A stretch of DNA of 64,000 bases, from contig NZ_CP142394.1 in assembly GCF_035930445.1 (NCBI RefSeq), forward strand, positions 281,501 through 345,500. Reading direction: 5' to 3'. The notes beneath the pieces are model-generated. The model did not search any database, had not been told where the DNA came from, and was given only the letters and a program-made list of their open reading frames with translations. The translations under genes were made by a program, and so were the position numbers. The first letter of the stretch is position 1. Each line of letters opens with the position of its first letter. Below are positions 37,784 through 41,026 of the stretch, piece by piece. The stretch is from Sphingopyxis chilensis (GTDB taxonomy: Bacteria; Pseudomonadota; Alphaproteobacteria; Sphingomonadales; Sphingomonadaceae).

Positions 37784-37825
37784 GGGGTAGCTTCGCCGTG
37801 TAAGGCAATAAATTGGGAGATGAGG

Positions 37826-38302
37826 ATGGGACCGACTGATTTTGCTGATGCGTGTCGCGAAGAGCGTGATCTCATGCTTGCGAACTATTCCGACGCTTCT
37901 GGCGGGTCGGCGGTTGCCCAGCTTCTTACTGCGGCGAAGCTGTCACCGGAGCAGAGAAGTCAGGTAGTATCGGCTCTGGACGCCGCTCTAACTGACGCAT
38001 TCTACACCATGCTGCTTGCAATCGATGGCTCGGCTTCACTTGGCCGAGAGCAACAGTCGTTCATTCTCACCGACGGCGAGGGAAATGTAGTCGCGAACGG
38101 AGACGGTGGATTGGAAGCAGCAGCATGGGCAATTATATACTTGACAAAGCAGCCTATGAAACGGCATAGAATAGGGCATGACGAACATCACCGCCCCGCA
38201 CTTTCACGACGAAACCAAAGCTCGCGAGCATTTGGAAGCGATCCGTTGGCCCGAAGGCCCGACCTGTCCCCATTGCGGTTCGTTCAACGCCACGCGGCTT
38301 GA
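37826..38302 (+). pseudogene. small host gene interrupted near its 3' end by the IS1595-type transposon
   Basis: Starts at the ATG at 37826 (GGGAG 6 bp upstream). The native part runs to 38127 and reads MGPTDFADACREERDLML through GNVVANGDGGLEAAAW. Beyond 38127 the frame runs into the transposon and ends by chance at 38302. Removing the element and one target copy joins codon TG(38126-38127) to G(40465) and gives ...AAWEALQSSR and a stop at 40487-40489, so the insertion hit about 8 codons before the natural stop. The product, about 109 aa intact, may keep most of its fold. I do not recognise the family. Confidence 0.75.
38128..38152 (+). repeat. left terminal inverted repeat of the transposon
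   Basis: 25 bp, beginning GGCAATTATATAC and containing TTGACA (38141-38146), a possible -35 box reading inward to the transposase. Preceded by target duplication GCAGCATG at 38120-38127. Confidence 0.93.
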
Positions 38303-39092
38303 AGGCAAGAAGCACCGCGCCGGTCTGGTCCAGTGCAACGATTGCCGCGAACAGTTCACCGTCACTGTTGGCACCGTGTTCGAGCGTTCGAAGGTCCCGC
38401 TTCACAAATGGCTGCTCTGCAATCACCTGCTTTGCGCGTCCAAAAAGGGGATGAGCGCAAAGCAGATCGAACGTATGCTGGGCGTCACCTACAAGACCGC
38501 TTGGTTCATGTGCCACCGCATCCGCGAGGCCATGAAGGTTGATGATACCGATGGCCCCCTTGGCGGTCCTGACGCCGTCGTGGAAGCCGATGAAACCTAT
38601 GTCGGCGGCAAGGCCAAGAACCGCGCCACCCGTCGCCCCGCTCCCAAGAAGGCCGTTGTCGCCCTTGTCGAGCGTGACGGCCATGTTCGTTCGTTCCACG
38701 TCGCCAACGTCAACGCCAAGCATCTGCGCGGCCTTATCGTCACCAACGTGGACCGCCGCTCGCACCTTATGACCGACGAAAGCGTCGTCTATACCAGCGT
38801 GGGCCGCGAGTTTAACGGCCACAGCGTCGTGAACCACAGCGCCAAGGAATATGTGACCACCGGCGGCTTCAAGCACAGCAACACCGCTGAAAACTTCTTC
38901 TCCATTTTCAAGCGCGGGGTCATCGGCACCTATCACCATATGAGCGAGGCACACCTTGCCCGCTACACTGGCGAATTTGATTTCCGCTATAACACCCGCA
39001 CTATGACCGATGCCGAACGTAGCGCGGTCGCCTTGTCGCGCATCGGCGGTAAGCGCCTTACCTATCGGCGGACTGACGCAATCGCCGCCTGA
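38178..39092 (+). CDS. IS1595 family transposase (ISXO2-like)
   Basis: 304 aa. An N-terminal zinc ribbon (CPHCGS and CNDCREQF) is followed by an HTH (SAKQIERMLGVTYKTAWFMCHRI). The ISXO2-like catalytic domain shows first acid in VVEADETYVGGKAK, second acid in HLMTDESVVY, and the Asn plus basic residue of the DDNK-type motif in HSNTAENFFSIFKRGVIG. The frame is intact, so the enzyme is probably active. The ATG lies 50 bp from the left end of the element. Confidence 0.95.
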   Translation: MTNITAPHFHDETKAREHLEAIRWPEGPTCPHCGSFNATRLEGKKHRAGLVQCNDCREQFTVTVGTVFERSKVPLHKWLLCNHLLCASKKGMSAKQIERMLGVTYKTAWFMCHRIREAMKVDDTDGPLGGPDAVVEADETYVGGKAKNRATRRPAPKKAVVALVERDGHVRSFHVANVNAKHLRGLIVTNVDRRSHLMTDESVVYTSVGREFNGHSVVNHSAKEYVTTGGFKHSNTAENFFSIFKRGVIGTYHHMSEAHLARYTGEFDFRYNTRTMTDAERSAVALSRIGGKRLTYRRTDAIAA

Positions 39093-39262
39093 TTGGTATC
39101 AGGCCCCGCGCGTCATTGGTGAGCGCCGCAAGCGATGGACGGGCCGATAACTGCGGCAAAGCGTTCCAGAATTTCTACGAGCCGAGTCGCTAAATAGTGA
39201 TTCACCATATGGACTCGCGCGCTTGCGCCATTCATGTAGGTTCTCGACATGTTCTGAAATGA

Positions 39263-39294
39263 AGAAAGCCCAGCGTTGGCGCGCCGGGCTTTCT
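39263..39294. terminator. hairpin with 9-bp perfect stem inside the transposon
   Basis: Arms AGAAAGCCC and GGGCTTTCT around a 14-nt GC-rich loop, 170 bp after the transposase stop. Because the arms are A-rich on one side and T-rich on the other, it can terminate transcription from either direction. The surrounding 39093-39419 interval has no convincing gene. Confidence 0.65.
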
Positions 39295-39419
39295 GATCAG
39301 GATAGTTCCGCAAATCTTGGTCTGGGGCGCGGGACTGGAGAAACCTGAGAACCGCCGTGTGACATGGCGGGGACTCCTCGTCAAGTCTCAGATCGCGCCA
39401 TCTCAAAGGAGATATAGAC

Positions 39420-39626
39420 ATGGCGCTAGACGACGAAAACGGGGGCAAGCGCAAGCGCGCCCGCCTGAACGAAGAGACCATCCGCGCTATCTGGGAACGC
39501 CTCAAAGCGGGGCATTACCAGCACGATATCGCGGCCGACCTTGGCATCAACCAGGGTCGCGTTTCTGAAATCAAAACGGGCAAACGAGGCACCGGATTTA
39601 CCGGTCGCCAGCCTTCCCTGTTTTAA
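39420..39626 (+). CDS. passenger gene: small helix-turn-helix protein
   Basis: 68 aa, with a strong AAAGGAG ribosome site 9 bp upstream of the ATG. A basic, acidic-rich start is followed by LNEETIRAIWERLKAGHYQHDIAADLGINQGRVSEIKTGKR. This is a clear HTH of the kind used in resolvases and small phage regulators. Probably a DNA-binding regulator of the transposon or of the next passenger gene, possibly acting as its antitoxin. A hairpin GCCGTGTGACATGGC lies in its leader. Ends just before a strong terminator. Confidence 0.75.
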   Translation: MALDDENGGKRKRARLNEETIRAIWERLKAGHYQHDIAADLGINQGRVSEIKTGKRGTGFTGRQPSLF

Positions 39627-39738
39627 CCTTTGCGGGGGCGGGTTTCGGCTCGCCCCCCTTTTTTGCCTTGTGTGGCGTCGGTGGGGTCGCCAGCATCCGG
39701 CGAAGCGTCTCTAGCTCTTTTTGATCGGTGTCTGACAT
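39598..39738 (-). CDS. possible 46-aa basic protein, antisense to the HTH 3' end
   Basis: Minus-strand ORF from the ATG at 39738 to a TAA at 39598, too short for routine ORF calling. It reads MSDTDQKELETLRRMLATPP, then TPHKAKKGGEPKPAPA and a basic tail. The MLxTPPxPHK pattern resembles small proteins I know from phages and alphaproteobacterial genomes. AGGA lies 10 bp upstream. It overlaps the terminator at 39633 and the HTH gene stop, so it could also be a fortuitous frame. Confidence 0.35.
   Translation of the reverse strand: MSDTDQKELETLRRMLATPPTPHKAKKGGEPKPAPAKVKTGKAGDR
39633..39664 (+). terminator. rho-independent terminator after the HTH gene
   Basis: Stem GGGGGCG / CGCCCCC around GGTTTCGGCT, followed by CTTTTTT. 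Located 7 bp after the HTH stop. Confidence 0.82.
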
Positions 39739-40273
39739 GGATGACATTCCTCACATCAACAAAACGTATTCAACGCCGGTAGGCTACGACCAGCGAGCTT
39801 GGGTTAACCGCCATGTTGGCGCACTAATCGCTCAATGGGCGACTGCTGAATCTCACATCATCAACATGATCGCCATGATTTTGAGAGTCAGTCAGGCCAA
39901 CGGTGACGTGATATTTTTCAGCCAATCCAGTCATTATGGCAGAATGAAACTATTAAACGCCCTCATCAATACGAATTTGCAGGGTGACCTAAAAGACCGC
40001 AGCCTTGCCATTATAAAGAGGTTCAAGGCACCAACCCGACTCCGGAACGAGCTGGCCCACGCGGAATGGGTAATTGATCAAGGGACAGGCCACTACATAG
40101 CGACCGTCTCGGCCAATCTCGATACGGTCGATCAAAAACCGCTGCTCGAAACCAAAGCTTTCGACAAGGGACGGATCAACGAAATCGATCAGGCGTGCCG
40201 AGTCCTATCTAAAATCGTAAACGACATCATCGATCTCAACGAAGACCTACGGAAGCGACCGCTTTCCGAATAA
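39737..40273 (+). CDS. passenger gene: HEPN-like protein with an R-x4-H motif
   Basis: 178 aa from the ATG at 39737 (a GTG at 39728 in frame would add three residues; neither has a strong ribosome site). Largely helical. The segment APTRLRNELAHAEWVI contains R-N-x3-H (Arg103, His108), the catalytic signature of HEPN ribonucleases found in toxins and anti-phage effectors. I know no exact family, so nuclease activity is an inference from the motif and helical context. It follows the HTH gene inside the transposon and overlaps the convergent 64-aa ORF by 38 bp. Confidence 0.7.
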   Translation: MDDIPHINKTYSTPVGYDQRAWVNRHVGALIAQWATAESHIINMIAMILRVSQANGDVIFFSQSSHYGRMKLLNALINTNLQGDLKDRSLAIIKRFKAPTRLRNELAHAEWVIDQGTGHYIATVSANLDTVDQKPLLETKAFDKGRINEIDQACRVLSKIVNDIIDLNEDLRKRPLSE

Positions 40274-40430
40274 TGTCGGGCATCATTTCCCGAATATCGG
40301 ACACGGAGTAGTCCGTGGACGCCATGCCCGAACCCTGCGCCAATACGACTTGCATACCAGCCTCAACCATCTGAGGCGTAATCTCAATCGCTACCGGCCT
40401 GTCACGCGGCGTCTCTGATAAACTGGCCAT
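40236..40430 (-). CDS. passenger ORF: 64-aa protein starting at the edge of the right repeat
   Basis: 64 aa. The phrase IEITPQMVEAGMQVVLAQ resembles small proteins beginning ITPEMIEAG in alphaproteobacteria and their phages. The ATG at 40430 is one base inside the right inverted repeat, whose inner end supplies AGCAGG as a ribosome site. Only 26 bp separate it from the element end, so it would need a promoter in flanking DNA. Convergent overlap with the HEPN-like gene. Function unknown. Confidence 0.5.
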   Translation of the reverse strand: MASLSETPRDRPVAIEITPQMVEAGMQVVLAQGSGMASTDYSVSDIREMMPDIIRKAVASVGLR

Positions 40431-40431
40431 C

Positions 40432-40456
40432 CTGCTTTCTCAAGTATATAATTGCC
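40432..40456 (-). repeat. right terminal inverted repeat of the transposon
   Basis: 25 bp, complementary to 38128-38152 with a single mismatch at position 18. Followed by the target duplicate GCAGCATG at 40457-40464. Confidence 0.93.
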
Positions 40457-40464
40457 GCAGCATG

Positions 40465-41026
40465 GGAGGCTCTTCAGTCGAGTCGATAGCGGTCTGGAGC
40501 GCGACCCCTCCTTCATCGTCATCCCGGACTTGATCCGGGATCCATTGCAGCGCCGCCGTCATGGACCCCGGATCAAGTCCGGGGTGACGAAACAGGGGGC
40601 CTCGAAAGGGGCTTTCCTACATTATTTCGCTGTGCCAGCCTGCGGTCCGGCTCTTTGATTTCGTCGATATTCGCGCCTTTGCTTAAAGCGACAAAGGAGA
40701 CAGTTTTGCGCTGCGCGTGCGAGTCTTTTGTCTCCTTAAGGCCGGACGCGGACGCCGCTAAAGCCACAAAGGACACAAATTGGAGGTCCGCACGCGGGGC
40801 CTTTGTGGCTTTAGGGCGAAGCGCCGACCGTATCCTCCCTGTCGCGTAGCGATGGGGAGGGGGACCGTCGCCGCAGGCGATGGTGGAGGGGCGGCGACGG
40901 CAGCGCCATTGCCCCTCCGTCAGCGCTTCGCGCTGCCACCTCCCCACGGCTTCGCCGCAGGGAGGATCACATGCTTGCATTGCCGACGCGTTTGCCTGAT
41001 TGGGAGCGCCGAGAAGGAGACCGCCC
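40465..41026. repeat. gene-free 560-bp block built from several palindromic repeats
   Basis: No credible gene. From left: the severed tail of the host gene (stop TAG at 40487); a TCATCCCGGACTTGATCCGGGATC / GATCAAGTCCGGGGTGA pair (40517-40589); a group of nested arms at about 40678-40825 (CGACAAAGGAGAC / GTCTCCTT and GCCACAAAGG / CCTTTGTGGC); then a CCTCCCTGTCGC...CAGGGAGGATC element (about 40833-40969). The frmA ribosome site follows. Confidence 0.75.

What the first reader, a model, noticed from the sequence alone, without database searches (positions are those of the whole stretch)
38120..40464. Complete IS1595-family transposon with passenger genes and an intact target duplication
Seen directly: 25-bp inverted ends (24/25), GCAGCATG duplicated on both sides, an intact IS1595/ISXO2 transposase, and about 1.4 kb of extra DNA holding an HTH gene, a HEPN-like gene and two short ORFs. 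IS1595 is a family in which some members carry passenger genes, so this fits, but this cargo set is one I do not recognise. It behaves as a compact cargo-carrying mobile unit.
Basis: partly seen in the sequence, partly recalled or inferred. Interest (0 to 1): 0.85.

Follow-up and report, generated by a model that had tools for sequence, protein, structure and literature searches.

The report
Two-slot transposon with swappable RNase-like cargo
A small bacterial jumping gene carries, next to its transposase, a probable RNA-cutting defence or toxin gene, and its close relatives carry quite different genes in exactly the same place, as if the element were a shuttle with exchangeable warheads.

Summary
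In detail: window 38128-40456 is an intact IS1595-family transposon (25-bp ends, 24/25; GCAGCATG duplicated; intact transposase; about 1.36 kb of passenger DNA) in a Sphingopyxis chromosome. The larger result came from relatives. Of 89 loci scanned, 61 are complete elements with perfect 8-bp duplications, 1.9-4.2 kb long, all with at least 0.9 kb beyond the transposase. Elements with similar transposases share blocks only: A (left end, transposase), usually B (60-166 bp inside) and C (right end). The slots between hold different genes. Block B encodes a conserved basic small protein (orfS, minus strand). In 39 of 54 orfS elements its start codon overlaps that of a plus-strand ORF in one CATG, where conservation drops. 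Slot 2 often holds highly diverged HEPN-like proteins: RN...H occurs in 37 of 57, against 0.96 expected by shuffling, and in 2 of 200 flanking ORFs; 9 of 14 in a second set. The window's cargo (RNELAH) has it. Other elements carry GmrSD, PIN, PemK, NYN, SLFN, D12-methylase or SocA-like genes. Best reading: a compact carrier of exchangeable conflict genes, the window's probably an HEPN RNase. RNase activity, phage defence and the way cargo is exchanged are inferred, not shown.

The parts
38120..38127 (.). left target-site duplication GCAGCATG
38128..38152 (+). left terminal inverted repeat (25 bp, 24/25)
   Evidence: first 25 bases identical in relative L040
38128..39147 (+). block A: left end, transposase and about 55 bp after it; 94% identical to Sphingopyxis flava element L060, 90% (to 39138) to G025
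38178..39092 (+). IS1595-family transposase, 304 aa, zinc ribbon + DDE domain; 45 synonymous and 1 nonsynonymous change against L060
39148..39656 (+). slot 1 (variable)
   Evidence: not shared with L060 or G025
39420..39626 (+). slot-1 gene: 68-aa HTH protein, weakly KorA/TrfB-like
   Evidence: a 72% identical HTH in G024 without a transposase hit in 10 kb
39634..39657 (+). intrinsic-terminator-like hairpin plus T run after the HTH gene (number of such sites in the region is at chance level)
39657..39739 (.). block B: internal conserved island, 92% identical to L060 (75 bp) and 96% to G025 (83 bp); right edge is the slot-2 ATG
39598..39738 (-). orfS: small basic protein MSDTDQKELETLRRMLATPPTPHKAKK...; start codon overlaps that of the slot-2 gene in one CATG (39736-39739)
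39737..40273 (+). slot-2 gene from its ATG (178 aa; 181 aa from the GTG at 39728): HEPN-like cargo with RNELAH at residues 106-111 of the 181-aa reading
40236..40430 (-). orfR: 64-aa ORF reading inward from the right end (EITPQMVEAGMQVVL...); similar ORFs at the right end of some relatives; no Pfam match
40432..40456 (-). block C: right terminal inverted repeat
40457..40464 (.). right target-site duplication GCAGCATG
37820..38127 (+). interrupted host ORF (uncharacterised; weak Pfam noise only); across the joined flanks it would read ...GLEAAAWEALQSSR-stop

Best explanation
The element is a living or very recently living IS1595-family transposon that works as a compact carrier of exchangeable conflict genes. 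SHOWN by sequence: everything between the two 25-bp ends is one unit with an 8-bp duplication. Inside there is a recurring plan: block A (left end and transposase), slot 1, block B (start of the orfS small protein), slot 2, block C (right end). Slot contents change much faster than the transposase, and slot 2 can change while slot 1 stays. Slot 2 is commonly joined to block B at a CATG in which the start codons of orfS (minus strand) and of the cargo gene (plus strand) overlap. In this transposase group slot 2 often holds HEPN-like proteins that keep RX4H and little else. INFERRED: the window's cargo is a metal-independent HEPN endoribonuclease that acts alone, probably as an abortive-infection or growth-arrest effector against phages or other incoming DNA. 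Its benefit to the host keeps the transposon, and an arms race explains why the cargo turns over so fast. INFERRED, weaker: because the two genes start head to head in one CATG, minus-strand transcription of orfS would begin inside whatever cargo is installed and make RNA complementary to the 5' end of its mRNA, so the backbone could restrain any cargo without a matching antitoxin.
For: Ends and duplications: 61 of 89 loci; controls 0 of 81, 0 of 78, 0 of 89. Strong selection on the transposase: 45 synonymous and 1 nonsynonymous change against L060. Plan: of 34 element pairs with transposase identity of 85% or more, 26 share an internal island apart from the left block (21 of these also a right-end piece), in 4 the left block runs on past element base 1150, and in 4 no island is seen. 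L073/L198, L075/L077 and L078/L083 share slot 1 but not slot 2. L129 and L136 have 93% identical slot-2 proteins but 80% identical transposases. HEPN motif: RN...H in 37 of 57 right-end cargos, shuffles mean 0.96, max 5 in 500 rounds; 9 of 14 in a second set, shuffles 0.30; 2 of 200 mechanical flanking ORFs of 150-320 aa against 37 of 56 cargos of that size. In a 53-sequence alignment with 10% mean column identity only M1, R106 and H111 reach 90%. Cargo pair L129/L136: 23 synonymous changes on 145 sites, 12 nonsynonymous on 494. AlphaFold model of the window cargo: pLDDT 86.6, pTM 0.79, mostly helical, RN...H at the end of helix 100-110. orfS: codon-position conservation 0.62/0.80/0.54; SD-like tetramer before orfS in 19 of 39 against 12% background. 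Shared CATG in 39 of 54 against 30 of 857 other minus-strand ATGs. Cargo of other elements, from 20 ORFs I picked by hand: GmrSD_N, D12 methylase, PIN, PemK, SLFN_AlbA, SocA, NYN, DUF3800.
Confidence: 0.55

Rival explanations
1. Addiction module: the HEPN-like protein is a toxin that kills cells which lose the transposon, with orfS, orfR or an antisense RNA as antidote.
For: HEPN toxins are found in toxin-antitoxin pairs (PMC3710099, passages). Tn3 transposons carry toxin-antitoxin pairs, an HEPN type in the section list, inside the transposition module (PMC7157771, abstract, section list and sections 8 and 14). Other elements of this group carry PemK, PIN and SocA-like genes. The relative of the window cargo in G422 has an ORF nearby that looks HicB-like to me (not tested).
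Against: orfS is nearly the same in WIN, L060 and G025, whose slot-2 proteins are unrelated or barely related, so it does not covary like a cognate antitoxin. No conserved second gene was seen to travel with the slot-2 gene apart from orfS and the variable orfR.
Confidence: 0.2
2. Regulator of transposition: the cargo RNase cuts transposase or minus-strand RNA and so limits copy number.
For: The window element is single-copy, and the cargo sits in a fixed place with a conserved upstream block.
Against: A self-regulator should co-evolve with the transposase; instead the cargo is replaced while the transposase is nearly unchanged. Cargo of other elements includes DNA methylases and GmrSD.
Confidence: 0.12
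3. Random passengers: any short gene may land in the slots, and HEPN-like proteins are only common hypothetical genes.
For: Slot 1 holds varied small genes, mostly of unknown function.
Against: RN...H in 37 of 56 cargos of 150-320 aa against 2 of 200 flanking ORFs of the same size; the label clusters on the transposase tree, 16 changes against 36.9 in shuffles, none of 500 as low, though near-copies favour clustering; purifying selection in the one close cargo pair tested.
Confidence: 0.05
4. Element-versus-element warfare: the diverse RNases exclude competing transposons, plasmids or satellites rather than phages.
For: Fast turnover of similar cargo in one mobile family; elements can lie side by side (L207).
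Against: No direct evidence; several IS1595-family transposases coexist in the window's genome.
Confidence: 0.08

Closest known systems
IS1595-family insertion sequences with passenger genes (tIS)
   Same: Transposase domains, inverted ends, 8-bp duplications, passenger genes. The term tIS was seen in PMC7986276 (passages); the family paper (Siguier, Gagnevin and Chandler 2009) only in its reference list, not read. That some family members carry passengers is recalled.
   Different: All 66 elements delineated carry cargo, commonly in two slots around a conserved island, and slot 2 prefers one kind of protein. I saw no description of this in the listings of searches, most of whose papers I did not open. 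The ISfinder subgroup was not determined.
Toxin-antitoxin pairs inside Tn3-family transposons (PMC7157771; abstract, section list and sections 8 and 14 seen)
   Same: Conflict genes exchanged between related transposons and placed inside the transposition module; its section list has an HEPN type.
   Different: Tn3 carries two-gene pairs near res. Here a single cargo gene is joined at its start codon to a divergent small gene, no resolvase was seen in the window element, and orfS does not behave as a cognate antitoxin.
HEPN proteins of integron cassettes and other HEPN RNases (PMC3710099; passages seen)
   Same: RX4-6H motif with a polar residue after R; HEPN genes on exchangeable mobile cassettes.
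   Different: The carrier is a DDE transposon. The window cargo matches no named HEPN family. attC sites were not searched for.
Tn7-like transposons with defence cargo (PMC8649781; start of abstract and one passage seen)
   Same: Transposons carrying many defence genes, HEPN (37 in its table) among them.
   Different: Tn7-like elements belong to another transposition system with more transposition genes (recalled). These are mostly 2-3 kb with one transposase and one or two larger cargo genes.

Membership tests
IS1595 family | zinc-ribbon plus ISXO2-like DDE transposase | tested here: met
   PF12762 2.5e-34 and PF12760 9.3e-13, both above curated cutoffs
IS1595 family | terminal inverted repeats and 8-bp target duplication (8 bp recalled for the family) | tested here: met
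   same in 61 of 89 related loci, controls 0
IS1595 family | demonstrated transposition | not testable with these tools
   indirect: intact ends, perfect duplication, transposase under strong selection
IS1595 family | assignment to an ISfinder subgroup | not tested
   ISfinder not available here
transporter IS (tIS) | passenger genes between the ends of an IS | tested here: met
   about 1.36 kb after the transposase; all 66 elements have at least 903 bp after the transposase match
HEPN superfamily | RX4-6H with a polar residue after R | tested here: met
   RNELAH in the window protein; R106 and H111 invariant in 33 cargos that I had selected for the motif and at least 90% in 53 not so selected
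HEPN superfamily | four-helix HEPN fold | tested here: inconclusive
HEPN superfamily | match to a named HEPN profile | tested here: inconclusive
   none for the window protein; siblings hit DUF4145 (4 of 53, best 1.1e-5) and HEPN_RiboL-PSP (1 of 53, 1.3e-5)
HEPN superfamily | RNase activity | not testable with these tools
   needs a bench assay
type II toxin-antitoxin system | cognate antitoxin that varies with the toxin | tested here: not met
   orfS nearly constant while slot-2 proteins are unrelated or barely related in WIN, L060, G025
integron cassette | attC site and integron integrase | not tested
   no integrase was noted among the window element's ORFs, but neither attC nor integrase was searched for

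The most novel reading that the evidence does not exclude
This transposon group is a built-in cargo-exchange platform. A conserved block with a bidirectional CATG start accepts any toxic or defensive gene at its start codon, and the divergent orfS transcript, which must begin inside the new cargo, automatically supplies a matching antisense RNA. One backbone could thus keep an open-ended series of unrelated RNases under control and swap them fast, like a single-gene defence hotspot that moves.
Probability: 0.25. Interest if true: 0.88.

Novelty: new variant of a known kind. Interest (0 to 1): 0.72.

Why it matters
If right, one of the smallest kinds of transposon is a specialised carrier of diverse probable RNase effectors that current libraries largely miss: at E 0.1 Pfam has one family with 4 of the 53 cargos and otherwise single-member matches, and PADLOC (at E 0.01) four single-member matches. 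The fixed slot and ends give a simple way to collect new conflict genes: find the transposase, read slot 2. The shared-CATG junction raises a testable question, namely how a transposon changes its cargo at a start codon and stays viable with each new toxin-like gene.

Tried and rejected
Empty site: the joined flanks matched only the own genome among 80 same-genus genomes; conspecific G003 has a different 1.3-kb stretch there. So the argument for one mobile unit rests on ends and duplications, not on an empty site.

Homologues of the window cargo: none in viral contigs, plasmids or phages; 3 of 397 family genomes including its own and 4 of 385 class genomes including its own, the others at 36% identity or less. 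Three of these five could not be recovered by a second tblastn at E 0.01 (L049, L155, L156).

orfS as cognate antitoxin: rejected, since it does not vary with the cargo. RNA family: only two sub-threshold chance hits. Promoter-like and terminator-like counts are at chance level, so no promoter is claimed.

Structure libraries: Foldseek against the PDB negative; the second look lists HEPN toxins and MtlR among unrelated bundles, not used as proof. No second fold (L060 class): the job failed. PHROGs: three families without known function match 4, 2 and 1 of the 53 cargos.

Distant transposases (under 320 bits): of those with a plus-strand right-end ORF, 0 of 5 have RN...H, so the HEPN preference is not general to the family. 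Tree labels (R[NDH]...H or LR.[AS][LMF]D in the slot-2 plus ORF) miss minus-strand cargo: by eye L246 (RNATMH) and L238 (RGGLLH) hold RX4H but are labelled 'other'. The tree (quick method) warns of long branches.

Biases: the CATG set was chosen by the orfS motif and aligned on the shared start, so higher conservation before than after it is partly built in; A3 was chosen for the motif. The 20 ORFs were picked by hand because they looked recognisable. Four of the 66 elements (G025, G010, G043, G037) do not show a perfect duplication at my boundaries; G043 is the same contig as L082, which is counted among the 89 as a miss.

Rows dropped: three viral loci whose match reaches the contig end were not scanned (L141, L145, L151). 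Before the statistics I left out L207 (duplicate of L100) and L051, L052, L056, L057, L058 (near-copies of a far type); L156 was also listed but had given no element. L207 and five of six identical G096 copies were dropped before the tree; L207 and all G096 copies before the pair analysis. My notebook says 32 pairs; the right number is 34.
Full report
OBSERVATION. The window lies in a 3.95-Mb single-contig genome. The genus is Sphingopyxis, judged from G004, a same-genus genome whose contig C40 has the same length (48,857) as the named Sphingopyxis flava contig behind L060. It occurs once at full length in its own genome. Across the joined flanks an uncharacterised host ORF would read through to a stop. 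The empty site was not found elsewhere: 1 of 80 same-genus genomes matched the joined flanks, the own one. A conspecific genome, 98-99% identical on both sides, lacks the element and the interrupted ORF and has another 1.3 kb there.

RELATIVES SET THE ENDS. Among 80 same-genus genomes including its own, 28 have a match, but no other listed match runs the full length of the element. The closest, G004 (94%) and G025 (90%), share the left 1.0 kb, an internal patch of 75-83 bp and the right end. With flanks included, similarity starts within 3 bp of the left end and stops within 9 bp of the right end. G004's element has its own duplication, GTTGAATG; G025's has none. A transposase alignment found 80 loci in named genomes and the single transposase 12 in viral contigs. 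I scanned 89 of these 92 for a pair of ends flanking the transposase. In 61 of 89 the best pair has at least 18 of 24 matching end bases and a perfect 8-bp duplication. When the left end is sought 1,300 or 2,600 bp upstream or inside the transposase, 0 of 81, 0 of 78 and 0 of 89 pass. With the window and four unnamed-genome elements this makes 66 elements of 1,879-4,247 bp, all with at least 903 bp after the transposase match. A cargo-free relative, about 30% identical, is 1,150 bp long, with six identical copies and six different duplications in one genome.

CONSERVED BLOCKS, TWO SLOTS. I compared all 34 element pairs (of 110 elements) whose transposases are at least 85% identical. In 26 pairs DNA similarity is confined to a left block (end plus transposase plus some tens of bases), a separate internal island of 60-166 bp, and in 21 of the 26 a piece of the right end. 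In 4 pairs (L073/L198, L075/L077, L078/L083, G010/G043) the left block runs on further; in 4 pairs of a distant group no island is seen. Apart from a few short pieces the DNA between gave no match at E 0.01. Where both members had a called slot-2 protein, 5 pairs gave a blastp match at E below 1e-3, at 23-55% identity over 29-153 residues. So cargo is replaced while the transposase hardly changes: the window and L060 transposases differ by 45 synonymous changes and 1 nonsynonymous change. L129 and L136 have 93% identical slot-2 proteins but 80% identical transposases, so cargo has also moved between backbones.

THE JUNCTION. The island (window 39657-39739) encodes on the minus strand the start of a small basic protein, orfS (common form: EDEVLKRMLKTPPKPHK). 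Found with one motif in 49 of 110 elements and with a looser one in 54, orfS shows a coding pattern in codons 2-12: mean conservation 0.62, 0.80 and 0.54 at codon positions 1, 2 and 3. In 39 of the 54 its ATG overlaps the ATG of a plus-strand ORF of at least 110 codons in one CATG; of 857 other minus-strand ATGs in those 39 elements, 30 do so. Base conservation is 0.62 before the shared start and 0.39 after it, in a set chosen by the orfS motif. A Shine-Dalgarno-like tetramer lies before orfS, thus inside the cargo's first codons, in 19 of 39, and before the cargo in 9 of 39, with 12% as background.

OTHER CARGO. Slot 1 of the window holds a weakly KorA-like HTH; G025 has DUF3892 there. Of 20 cargo ORFs from other elements, picked by hand, 13 have a Pfam match at E 0.01, among them GmrSD_N, PIN, PemK, SLFN_AlbA, SocA_Panacea, NYN, a D12 methylase and DUF3800, and 7 have none. 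A viral-contig element (L140) has a one-gene type I restriction-like protein plus a protein with RHILVH. On the transposase tree the HEPN label needs 16 changes against 36.9 in shuffles, none of 500 as low.

HOW IT MOST LIKELY WORKS. Shown by sequence: a transposon unit with two slots of changing content, one commonly joined at a shared CATG. Inferred: the slot-2 gene is an RNase effector that helps the host against phages or other invaders, which keeps the transposon and drives fast turnover. Weaker: minus-strand transcription through orfS begins inside the cargo and could restrain any cargo by antisense pairing. Against a classical toxin-antitoxin pair: orfS does not vary with the cargo. A 32%-identical relative of the window cargo lies on another genome's contig with no transposase hit in 14 kb, so the gene also lives outside these elements; an ORF that looks HicB-like (recalled, untested) lies near it.

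NOVELTY. HEPN genes are known in integron cassettes (PMC3710099, passages) and Tn7-like cargo (PMC8649781, one passage), and as a type in Tn3 toxin-antitoxin modules (PMC7157771, section list; sections 8 and 14 read). I saw no paper on HEPN cargo or a two-slot plan in IS1595-family elements in the listings of searches of an open-access library. Most of the listed papers were not opened, among them 13 of the 14 that hold IS1595 and 'passenger genes' and both that hold IS1595 and HEPN. Subscription papers, including the founding IS1595 paper, were not readable, so earlier notice is possible. I rate it a new variant of a known kind.

Noticed in passing
window 40502-40604 and 40831-40969: Two repeat families beside the element: a palindromic repeat with GGACTTGATCCGGG arms and another unit; dozens of partial copies in the conspecific genome G003.
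   Followed up: no
L043:4799-7041, L044:2292-4273, L050:3290-5378, L055:107: Three related IS1595 elements, and a fourth seen at one end only, sit at the same target, ACTTGATC, which resembles the palindromic repeat near the window element: possible preference for such repeats.
   Followed up: no
   Followed up: no
L140 (viral contig IMGVR_UViG_3300037312_000760): A 4.2-kb element in a viral contig carries a one-gene type I restriction-like protein (HSDR_N, N6_Mtase, specificity domains) in slot 1 and an RHILVH protein in slot 2, so these elements may ride on phages.
   Followed up: partly
L038 (G000:C1:225500-229000): The window's own genome holds another complete IS1595-family element (2,080 bp, duplication CAATATTT) with a 301-aa minus-strand cargo ORF, and a third transposase at C1:2988237-2989181 without detected ends.
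   Followed up: partly
L051, L052, L056, L057, L058 (same-genus genomes): A second, distant IS1595 group with 97-100% identical transposases and different cargo also shows left block, internal island and right end; duplications ACAAGTGT (four) and ACAAGTAT (one) suggest a preferred target.
   Followed up: partly
L048:7010-7636 (G422): A 32%-identical relative of the window cargo, with RNELAH kept, lies outside any detected IS1595 element, near an ORF that looks HicB-like to me (recalled, not tested).
   Followed up: partly
right ends of several elements, e.g. L069, L073, L076: A small minus-strand ORF begins inside the right inverted repeat itself (ATGACAAAGCA = MTKQ), with recurring ITPEMIEAG-like proteins of unknown function.
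   Followed up: partly
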